From Pseudobdellovibrionaceae bacterium (GTDB lineage: Bacteria; Bdellovibrionota; Bdellovibrionia; Bdellovibrionales; Bdellovibrionaceae): a stretch of 7,583 nucleotides of DNA. Numbering within the stretch: the stretch's first letter is position 1; every line of letters begins with the position of its first letter. Position numbers and translations under genes: made by a program. The stretch lies in assembly GCA_014376325.1 (NCBI GenBank), contig JACMRP010000143.1:1-7583 (forward strand), in the 5' to 3' direction. Below, one piece after another: positions 1-7,583 of the stretch. A model generated the notes under the pieces. The model did not search any database. It was given only the letters and a program-made list of their open reading frames with translations, and was not told the origin of the DNA.

Positions 1-189
1 GAGTGTGGTTGGGCAGGACGCGCGCTCGCAAACACGAAGCACGAAACAGAATTTCTGATGAAAAGTCTTTCCGACGAAGCAACGCAAGCCTTCTACAAAA
101 TGCGAACGGGCAAAGTCTTCCAGCTACCAGTCCGCCAAAGCAAAGCCGGCATGATCGTCCTGCCAAAATCCGCAATCACGGTGCTCTAA
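1..189 (+). CDS. 3' end of a second, inverted copy of the small exported-protein gene (partial)
   Basis: Frame 1 is open from the left edge to TAA at 187-189 and encodes 62 residues identical to residues 109-170 of the minus-strand protein at 264-776, beginning ECGWAGRAL and ending with AITVL. The 5' part lies outside the window. The two nucleotide differences from the other copy both fall in third positions of leucine codons (CTA versus CTC at 124-126, CTC versus CTT at 184-186), so the protein is unchanged. Whether this is a real second gene or one arm of an assembly or amplification fold-back cannot be decided from the sequence. The function of the encoded protein is unknown. Confidence 0.55.
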   Translation, partial: ECGWAGRALANTKHETEFLMKSLSDEATQAFYKMRTGKVFQLPVRQSKAGMIVLPKSAITVL

Positions 190-265
190 GGTACGCCCTT
201 CTTTTTGGGCAAGCGTTGCGTCAACGAAGTGACGCAACGCTTGCCCAAAAAGAAGGGCGTACCTT
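188..265. terminator. 36-bp perfect hairpin between convergent gene ends, possible bidirectional terminator
   Basis: Bases 188-223 pair perfectly with 230-265 around the loop ACGAAG. The stem includes the last two bases of both TAA stop codons. It contains a run of five T (202-206) and the complementary A run on the other arm, but no T tract follows the stem, so it is not a textbook intrinsic terminator. It may act on both convergent transcripts. It is also the centre of the larger inverted repeat, and could be where an assembly or amplification switched strand. Confidence 0.45.
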
Positions 266-776
266 AAAGCACCGTGATTGCGGATTTTGGCAGGACGATC
301 ATGCCGGCTTTGCTTTGGCGGACTGGGAGCTGGAAGACTTTGCCCGTTCGCATTTTGTAGAAGGCTTGCGTTGCTTCGTCGGAAAGACTTTTCATCAGAA
401 ATTCTGTTTCGTGCTTCGTGTTTGCGAGCGCGCGTCCTGCCCAACCACACTCGCCGACTTTAAGATTTTCGCCTTTGCCACCCGCTGGCTTTGTGGCCGC
501 ACGGAATTTATAACGAACGGAATTTTGATCGAGCTGCTCGCTCCCCGCATTTGCGGCAGTCCAATCAAAATGAAATCGACTCTTCTTCGCTTTGCAGATC
601 AGCAAATACTCACTGCCCGACGCCGCCGGTTTTTTACTTTCAACAAGCACTTCAGATTGATTACCCGAAGCGTCTAGGACCGGATCCGCGTGAGTGGCTT
701 TGCCGGCACAACCGATGATTGCCAGAGCCGCTATGAGTAAATATTTCCAGGAAAACTTTTTTGTACGTGTGATCAT
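264..776 (-). CDS. Small exported protein, probable lipoprotein, unknown function
   Basis: 170 residues. A basic N-terminus (MITRTKK) is followed by a hydrophobic stretch at about 12-22 and a lipobox-like IIGC with Cys23, suggesting signal peptidase II processing. An alternative signal peptidase I site follows Ala30 (THA before Asp31). The mature part has Cys61 (YLLICKAK) and Cys110 (VGECGWAGRAL), possibly a disulfide pair. This LxxGECxWxxRxL-type stretch resembles small secreted hypothetical proteins I have seen elsewhere, but I assign no function. The ATG at 776 overlaps the upstream EI24-family stop as ATGA, and an AGAGGTGG ribosome site lies just before it inside that gene. It is the last gene of a four-gene operon ending in the hairpin at 188-265. 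A second copy of its 3' end lies inverted at 1-189. Confidence 0.85.
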   Translation of the reverse strand: MITRTKKFSWKYLLIAALAIIGCAGKATHADPVLDASGNQSEVLVESKKPAASGSEYLLICKAKKSRFHFDWTAANAGSEQLDQNSVRYKFRAATKPAGGKGENLKVGECGWAGRALANTKHETEFLMKSLSDEATQAFYKMRTGKVFQLPVRQSKAGMIVLPKSAITVL

Positions 777-1528
777 GAAGCCACCTCTTCAGTGGATCCA
801 TTATCCCGTAGCTCTTTCAGCGCGTTCAAGCAAAAATGGGCATAGGCTAGTCCAGCAAACACCGGCATCACGACGAAAGTCAGTGGCACATAATTGAAAC
901 TTCCTAAAATCGCGCCCAATCCGTAAAGGCTGCGCTGCTGTTGGCTTTCGATGAGATGGCGCTCTTCCAAAGACGCATATTCTTCGAGGACATCATACAC
1001 GAAAACACGTTTATTAAGATACGCGCCGAGTAAAATTGGCACCAAGATCGCACCGCCAGGAATTAGCCAGAGAGGCATCGTGACGATTAGCAAAACAGAA
1101 TACACGCCGCCGGCTTTCAACGTATTCCAAATATTTCCGAGAGCGCTTCCGCCGTATTTCTTCTGAAGAGTTGGGTAATATTTCAGTCCGACAATGCGGA
1201 GTAAAATCGGCATCAAAACAATCGACACGATGACGACCGTGACCAGGTACGCGATCGGCAAAAATAAAAGCACCACCAAAGCGACCGCAATAACAGAAGT
1301 CGCAATGCCAAAAACATCCGATGAACTCCAGGCGCCAAACACCTGCGTTGCGAGGGTAGAATGCTGCATGCTCTCGGAAAGTGAAGCGACCCACACCGTC
1401 CCCAACGTCGCAAATAAAACGACTCCGACAAGCAAAGTCAGCAACAAGGGTACCAATAATAAAAATAAAATTCGTATATCCAAGCAGCTAACGAATGCAT
1501 CCTTCAGAGCCCGCCCGATATTTGTCAT
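773..1528 (-). CDS. EI24/CysZ-family integral membrane protein
   Basis: 251 residues, close to E. coli CysZ (about 250). Hydrophobic blocks lie at about 19-50, 71-114, 140-172 and 212-238, the two longest able to form paired helices. The stretch YDVLEEYASLEERHLIESQQQ (178-198), followed by a glycine-rich segment and FNYVPLTFVVMPVFAG with AYAHF, is characteristic of the EI24 domain (PF07264). The N-terminal AxxDAFxSCLDxRIL also fits. CysZ members conduct sulfate, but many EI24 proteins are uncharacterised and no cysteine-biosynthesis gene lies nearby, so no substrate is assigned. The ATG at 1528 overlaps the exporter stop as ATGA, and its own stop overlaps the next start in the same way. A purine-rich GGAAAGAAG precedes the start. 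It acts in the inner membrane. Confidence 0.88.
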   Translation of the reverse strand: MTNIGRALKDAFVSCLDIRILFLLLVPLLLTLLVGVVLFATLGTVWVASLSESMQHSTLATQVFGAWSSSDVFGIATSVIAVALVVLLFLPIAYLVTVVIVSIVLMPILLRIVGLKYYPTLQKKYGGSALGNIWNTLKAGGVYSVLLIVTMPLWLIPGGAILVPILLGAYLNKRVFVYDVLEEYASLEERHLIESQQQRSLYGLGAILGSFNYVPLTFVVMPVFAGLAYAHFCLNALKELRDNGSTEEVAS

Positions 1529-7020: not shown

Positions 7021-7583
7021 ATGAGAAAGTTTTTAATTGCAATGATCCTTGCGGCTTTGACGGCGGAAGCAGCCGTCGCGGAAGAGCGCGGTCGCCCGGG
7101 CCCACCCCGCGGTGAACCACCTCCACGGAATGACGATGAAGATTGAAGAAGGGCCGAAGAAGAGCAGCAACGTCGTGACTCTGCTGCCCGTCGCGAACGC
7201 GCTAAAAGCGCTATGTCGGTTTCAAAAGTTTTTGCGGTCGGCCTAGACGAACAGCTTTGTATCGATTCTGCGAATGCACGAGTCAAAAAACTGACTGGCC
7301 ACACGGTTCGCACTTGCGAACGAAAAGCCGAAGGATTTTTTACTTGCGCGATCTCTGAACAAAAAGTTTCTGAAGCTCCGGGTCCTATCCTGGGTGTTGT
7401 CGGAAAAGGCGATTACAACCACAGTTCTGGCGACGAAACAAAATGTCGCACTTCCGTTATCAAAACGGCAGAAGCAAACGCGGTGGAACTTTGCAAAGCT
7501 AAGTTCGGGGTTGATTGCACCGTTACCAAGCGTGGCGAAGCGACCTTCGAGCTAAAAAAGAAACGTTACATTTGCGCCGCTAC
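7021..7583 (+). pseudogene. Secreted cysteine-rich protein gene interrupted by in-frame TGA, 3' end outside window
   Basis: The ATG at 7021 follows GAGAAAG with 5 nt spacing. The product begins with a Sec signal peptide (MRKFLIAMILAALTAEAAVA) and an Arg/Pro/Gly-rich stretch ending NDDED, then meets TGA at 7144-7146. The same frame stays open from 7147 to the window edge and encodes a sensible continuation: a charged helix (RRAEEEQQRRDSAARRERAK), then a domain with cysteines at 80, 99, 109, 142, 158, 166 and 185 counted from the ATG. TGG to TGA is a one-base change, so a recent nonsense mutation, a sequencing error or readthrough are all possible. TGA is a normal stop in neighbouring genes. 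The only downstream ATG (7213) lacks a ribosome site. Function unknown. Confidence 0.7.
7144..7146 (+). other. In-frame TGA within the secreted protein gene
   Basis: Codon 42 of the frame starting at 7021 reads TGA, preceded by GAT and followed by AGA. The 437 bases after it contain no further stop in this frame. Confidence 0.9.

What the first reader, a model, noticed from the sequence alone, without database searches (positions are those of the whole stretch)
1..452. Near-perfect 446-bp palindrome with a 6-nt loop at the left edge
Arms 1-223 and 230-452 are reverse complements at 221 of 223 positions. A real palindrome this long would be an unusual convergent gene duplication held against hairpin-cleaving nucleases; otherwise it is a fold-back chimera from assembly or amplification. 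Because the symmetry reaches base 1, its true extent is unknown.
Basis: partly seen in the sequence, partly recalled or inferred. Interest (0 to 1): 0.7.

Follow-up and report, generated by a model that had tools for sequence, protein, structure and literature searches.

The report
Fold-back palindrome artefact at contig edge
One end of this assembled piece of a Bdellovibrio-like bacterium runs into a gene end and then repeats it backwards, most likely because the DNA was folded back on itself during preparation or assembly, so it is probably not a real feature of the genome.

Summary
Chance is excluded. The right arm is native: it is the 3' end of a conserved lipoprotein-like gene (264-776, minus strand; 21 relatives listed). 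The left arm repeats only that gene's last 62 codons and stops at the edge. Hairpins this long were not seen elsewhere: the longest stem was 19 bp in 800 kb of a relative and 30 bp in 4.18 Mb of viral-contig stretches. Best reading (0.85): a fold-back chimera made in library preparation, amplification or assembly. One result cuts the other way: both mismatches are synonymous (chance 0.054), so the left arm may carry another strain's allele, or be a real second copy under selection. No reads were available, so a real snap-back duplication stays open (0.11).

The parts
1..223 (+). Left arm: mirror copy of the last 62 codons, the stop and 34 nt downstream of the lipoprotein-like gene; open at the contig edge; probably fold-back product
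224..229 (.). Loop ACGAAG between the arms
230..452 (-). Right arm: native 3' end of the lipoprotein-like gene and its downstream flank
187..266 (.). Mismatch-free core (37-bp stem, 6-nt loop); T-run before and A-run after the central stem, the reverse of an intrinsic terminator; no terminator-like site listed within 1-452
264..776 (-). Lipoprotein-like gene, 170 aa, no Pfam or NCBIfam match, 21 relatives listed besides itself
773..1528 (-). EI24/CysZ-like membrane protein gene, upstream neighbour; shares a contig length with the lipoprotein-like protein in 7 of 21 relatives
226..267 (+). Possible native C-terminal end (EVTQRLPKKKGVP, stop) of a convergent gene whose stop overlaps that of 264-776; weak evidence

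Best explanation
The palindrome is a fold-back (inverted) chimera at the edge of a metagenome contig, not a feature of the chromosome. Shown: the right arm is the native end of a conserved gene, the left arm is an almost exact mirror copy that runs to base 1. Inferred: during library preparation, amplification or assembly, a strand that ended just past the gene's stop paired with itself, or with the same region of a similar molecule, over a short inverted match near the 6-nt loop, and was extended back along the gene. The assembler then followed the mirrored sequence instead of the true neighbour and stopped. The two synonymous differences are best explained if the mirrored sequence came from another strain's allele. 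Which step made the chimera (library, amplification or graph) cannot be told.
For: The arms match at 221 of 223 around a 6-nt loop and the symmetry runs to the contig edge. The right arm is conserved gene sequence. In the relative L005 the gene on the mirrored side is a convergent histidine phosphatase overlapping the stop, and histidine phosphatase homologues share contig lengths with 8 of 21 relatives of the lipoprotein-like protein (a ninth equal length, 2368, belongs to a distant homologue, P0125, and was dropped). The clear genome match, G166, holds one copy only. No comparable hairpin in 800 kb of G166 (longest 19 bp) or 4.18 Mb of viral stretches (longest 30 bp). The core is not a terminator. 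Fold-back chimeras are well described: 406 of 475 chimeras in one amplification study were inverted (PMC1855051, passages), and library chimeras with palindromes and mismatched bases are described in PMC10908179 (passages).
Against: Both mismatches are synonymous, expected by chance with probability 0.054, which is odd for random error and needs a second allele. In 480 viral-contig stretches no stem longer than 30 bp was found, so such artefacts were not common there either. With k-mers longer than 37 an assembler would need reads that really join the two arms. Whether amplification was used, and which assembler, is unknown. The amplification chimeras in PMC1855051 mostly have an intervening deletion; a 6-nt loop would be a very short one.
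Confidence: 0.85

Rival explanations
1. A real palindromic inverted duplication. A broken or stalled end snapped back on a short inverted match with a spacer of about 6 nt and was copied, giving two convergent copies of at least the 3' end of the gene; both copies have since been kept under selection.
For: Both mismatches are synonymous in the coding frame. Large inverted repeats are real, if rare, in bacteria: PMC5345009 (passages) infers an ancestral 8-bp spacer in Lactobacillus bulgaricus, and PMC13155455 (passages) reports arms of hundreds to tens of thousands of bases in some complete bacterial genomes. PMC7999016 (passages) says that 5-9 bp inverted repeats with 3-12 bp spacers can drive palindromic duplication in yeast lacking Mre11 or Sae2.
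Against: The copy ends exactly at the contig edge. G166 has one copy and a different neighbour. No stem above 19 bp in 800 kb of G166. Long palindromes are hard to maintain, at least as clones in E. coli (PMC4057610, start of abstract in the listing).
Confidence: 0.11
2. A covalently closed hairpin end of a linear replicon, read through during sequencing.
For: A terminal mirror image with a small loop is what read-through of a hairpin end would give (recalled, not tested).
Against: The arms differ at two positions, which one duplex would not give. The symmetry lies at the end of a conserved chromosomal-type gene pair, and G166 continues past it. No match to plasmid records with the whole window or to phage records with 1-776. 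No protelomerase search was made.
Confidence: 0.02
3. A natural, very long hairpin (terminator or repeat element) of which only the core is real.
For: The central 80 bases are mismatch-free and fold at -87.6 kcal/mol in the 101-nt test piece.
Against: T-run before and A-run after the central stem, and no terminator-like site listed within 1-452. A 26-nt piece of the stem has no match with up to 2 mismatches in 368 of 368 genomes of the phylum, and a 21-nt piece has none in viral contigs. A 37-bp stem exceeds every stem seen in 800 kb of G166 and in the viral stretches.
Confidence: 0.02

Closest known systems
Inverted chimeras of multiple displacement amplification (PMC1855051, PMC13265396; passages)
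   Same: Sequence joined to its own inverted copy nearby; junctions often at short complementary matches
   Different: Whether this sample was amplified is unknown; loop here is only 6 nt; two synonymous differences between arms
Library-preparation fold-back reads, PDSM model (PMC10908179; passages)
   Same: Chimeric reads that hold a strand and its inverted complement, with mismatched bases, formed between strands of similar molecules
   Different: Described for human DNA at naturally occurring inverted repeats or palindromes; a natural seed could not be shown here, and the copy here is long enough to be assembled
Large inverted repeats at the Lactobacillus bulgaricus replication terminus (PMC5345009; passages)
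   Same: Inverted duplication thought to start from a short inverted match, inferred ancestral spacer 8 bp
   Different: 38-76 kb arms now separated by 1-8.8 kb, found in all 5 chromosomes of the subspecies; here one contig edge only

Membership tests
Fold-back sequencing or assembly chimera | Near-identical inverted copy with a very short loop | tested here: met
   221 of 223 matches, 6-nt loop
Fold-back sequencing or assembly chimera | Lies at a contig or read edge, with no unique sequence beyond the copy | tested here: met
   Symmetry reaches base 1; window length equals the listed contig length
Fold-back sequencing or assembly chimera | Arms identical apart from random error | tested here: inconclusive
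   Two mismatches, both synonymous; chance 0.054
Fold-back sequencing or assembly chimera | Junction reads rare against the native continuation | not testable with these tools
   No reads held
Real palindromic duplication | Unique sequence beyond both arms | not testable with these tools
   No sequence left of base 1
Real palindromic duplication | Seen in a second assembly or relative | tested here: not met
   P0001 on one contig only; G166 has one copy with a different convergent neighbour. The contigs of the other relatives could not be read
Intrinsic terminator | Stem-loop followed by a T-run | tested here: not met
   A-run follows the stem on either strand; none of the 17 listed terminator-like sites lies in 1-452
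Hairpin telomere of a linear replicon | Perfectly complementary arms of one duplex | tested here: not met
   Two mismatches
Hairpin telomere of a linear replicon | Protelomerase gene in the genome | not tested
   No genome held for the window

The most novel reading that the evidence does not exclude
A real, strain-specific snap-back duplication in a Bdellovibrio-like chromosome: two convergent, selected copies of a lipoprotein gene end, 6 nt apart, in a lineage that tolerates a palindrome of at least 446 bp. The two purely synonymous differences would be the sign of selection on both copies.
Probability: 0.11. Interest if true: 0.5.

Novelty: not a real feature. Interest (0 to 1): 0.1.

Why it matters
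As an artefact it matters only for annotation: the 62-codon open frame at 1-189 and the long frame 3-677 should not be called genes, and the contig should be trimmed to about position 230. If it were real it would be a long palindrome kept in a bacterial chromosome, which is rare and bears on how hairpin-cleaving repair acts in predatory bacteria.

Tried and rejected
Whole genome of the window: none held. Relatives' DNA by the lipoprotein alignment: none confirmed in genome contigs (58 stretches matched a pattern) or viral contigs (40 stretches). Thymidine kinase gave 4 loci, of which L001 and L002 look like relatives, but neither genome has the lipoprotein-like gene (0 of 2). In the phylum search 2 of 368 genomes match: G166 clearly, and G309 weakly and in part; in the relatives of G166, 1 of 59, itself.

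Idea that 226-267 is the end of the histidine phosphatase gene of the relatives: not supported. Similarity of the 13-residue peptide to 34 C-termini (P0038-P0071, of 120 listed) was reached by 306 of 1000 shuffles, and for the 25-residue peptide by 894 of 1000. Its codon score, 3.8, is that of coding sequence here (mean 4.55, sd 3.0) and the best of the six frames of 224-264 (next 1.43), so another convergent gene is possible; 13 codons is little.

Idea that the contig edge marks a k-mer junction: the outermost mismatch-free stretch is 125 bp, near but not equal to a k of 127 that some assemblers use (recalled); inconclusive.

Base rate of terminal fold-backs: the viral sample was drawn by four 14-base words from the stem and holds whole contigs and parts; I did not count the contig ends in it, and it is a curated viral set, so it is a loose yardstick only.

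An earlier count said that natural hairpins of G166 are A-to-T flanked; that is too strong: of the ten longest printed, four clearly are. Rfam: no match in the window. Literature: seven searches, of which one search found nothing and only two papers off the point; no paper on this locus was looked for by name.

Full report
Observation. The window's first 452 bases form a palindrome with arms 1-223 and 230-452 and loop ACGAAG. A direct comparison gives two mismatches, at 126/327 and 186/267, and mismatch-free stretches of 37, 59 and 125 bp outward from the loop. The probability of this by chance at one site is about 10^-129. The RNA of 180-280 folds into one long hairpin at -87.6 kcal/mol, z-score -16.67, 0 of 200 shuffles as good.

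What the arms are. On the minus strand, 264-776 encodes a 170-residue lipoprotein-like protein. Besides itself the search lists 21 relatives at 45-77% identity, and their conserved columns run through the part encoded in the right arm. It has no Pfam or NCBIfam match. The next gene, 773-1528, is EI24/CysZ-like (Pfam), and its relatives share a contig length with 7 of the 21. So the right arm lies in native sequence. The left arm repeats the last 62 codons, the stop and what follows, and is cut at base 1. Names given to relatives and the thymidine kinase hits (71% to L001, Oligoflexia bacterium BroJett040; 67% to L002, a Bdellovibrionaceae bacterium) place the contig among Bdellovibrio-like bacteria; this placement is an inference.

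What should stand there. In the one relative whose DNA could be read over this locus, L005 of genome G166, a convergent gene (909-1508) overlaps the stop of the lipoprotein-like gene (1498-2061, minus), and it is a histidine phosphatase (PF00300). A search with that protein listed 120 of 130 hits. Eight of the 21 relatives of the lipoprotein-like protein have a listed contig length equal to that of a close histidine phosphatase homologue: 14024, 6040, 14752, 5351, 144778, 3228, 3386 and 21539. A ninth equality, 2368, involves a distant homologue (P0125) and was dropped. Equal lengths are an inference of linkage, not a view of the contigs. The closest relatives, P0002 (860-base contig) and P0003 (21126), gave no such match. 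In the window the mirror image stands where this neighbour would be.

How unusual the hairpin is. One scan for stems with loops up to 60 gave 223 bp in the window, at most 19 bp in 800,000 bases of G166 (35 stems of 12 bp or more, 6 of 15 or more, none of 20 or more), and at most 30 bp in 480 stretches of viral contigs, 4,176,156 bases (5 of 20 bp or more). So neither a 223-bp palindrome nor a natural 37-bp seed stem fits what is usual in these samples. The core has a T-run before and an A-run after the central stem, and none of the 17 terminator-like sites listed lies in 1-452. A 26-nt stem piece has no match within 2 mismatches in 368 genomes of the phylum, a 21-nt piece none in viral contigs. 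The window has no near match in plasmid records, and 1-776 has none in phage records.

The two mismatches. Both are third positions of leucine codons and synonymous. Of 558 possible single changes in the coding part, 130 are synonymous, so two random changes would both be synonymous with probability 0.054 (0.038 if they must also fall in the coding part). This is the strongest result against simple random error. It fits a mirrored copy taken from another strain's molecule, as in the model of pairing between similar molecules (PMC10908179, passages), and it also fits a real second copy under selection.

Mechanism. Shown: geometry, native right arm, edge position, synonymous differences. Inferred: a strand ending just past the stop paired back over a short match at the loop and was extended; the assembler followed it. 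With k-mers above 37 the arms next to the loop are told apart by the inner mismatch, and above 80 no k-mer fits inside the mismatch-free core, so a graph error alone is likely only with small k; otherwise molecules that hold the junction must have been sequenced. Inverted chimeras made up 406 of 475 in an amplified E. coli cell (PMC1855051, passages), and about a third of mitochondrial reads were palindromic in amplified tardigrades (PMC13265396, passages). Whether this sample was amplified is not known.

Rivals. A real snap-back duplication is not excluded. Rare large inverted repeats exist in bacteria (PMC5345009 and PMC13155455, passages), and short inverted matches with spacers of 3-12 bp can start them in mutant yeast (PMC7999016, passages). 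I give it 0.11. A hairpin telomere and a natural giant hairpin are each unlikely (0.02).

Verdict. Ordinary: most likely a fold-back chimera at a contig edge, confidence 0.85, interest 0.1. Only reads can settle it.

Noticed in passing
window 7021-7581 (+): One reading frame, with a signal-peptide-like start, is interrupted by an in-frame TGA at 7144-7146, about 440 bases from the right contig edge: a broken gene or a base error.
   Followed up: no
window 264-776 (-): The lipoprotein-like family has no Pfam or NCBIfam model and matched only 2 of 368 genomes of the phylum, yet 21 relatives are listed from metagenome and other sources. The window's protein lacks the last residue, which is arginine in 19 of 21 relatives.
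   Followed up: partly
window 226-267 (+): A frame ending EVTQRLPKKKGVP and a stop that overlaps the stop of 264-776 has coding-like codon use (3.8 against a mean of 4.55), so another convergent gene may really lie here.
   Followed up: partly
L005 (genome G166): Lipoprotein-like gene, a gene that looks like the EI24/CysZ-like one (not tested by Pfam) and a convergent histidine phosphatase stand together, a gene order that seems conserved in Bdellovibrio-like bacteria.
   Followed up: partly
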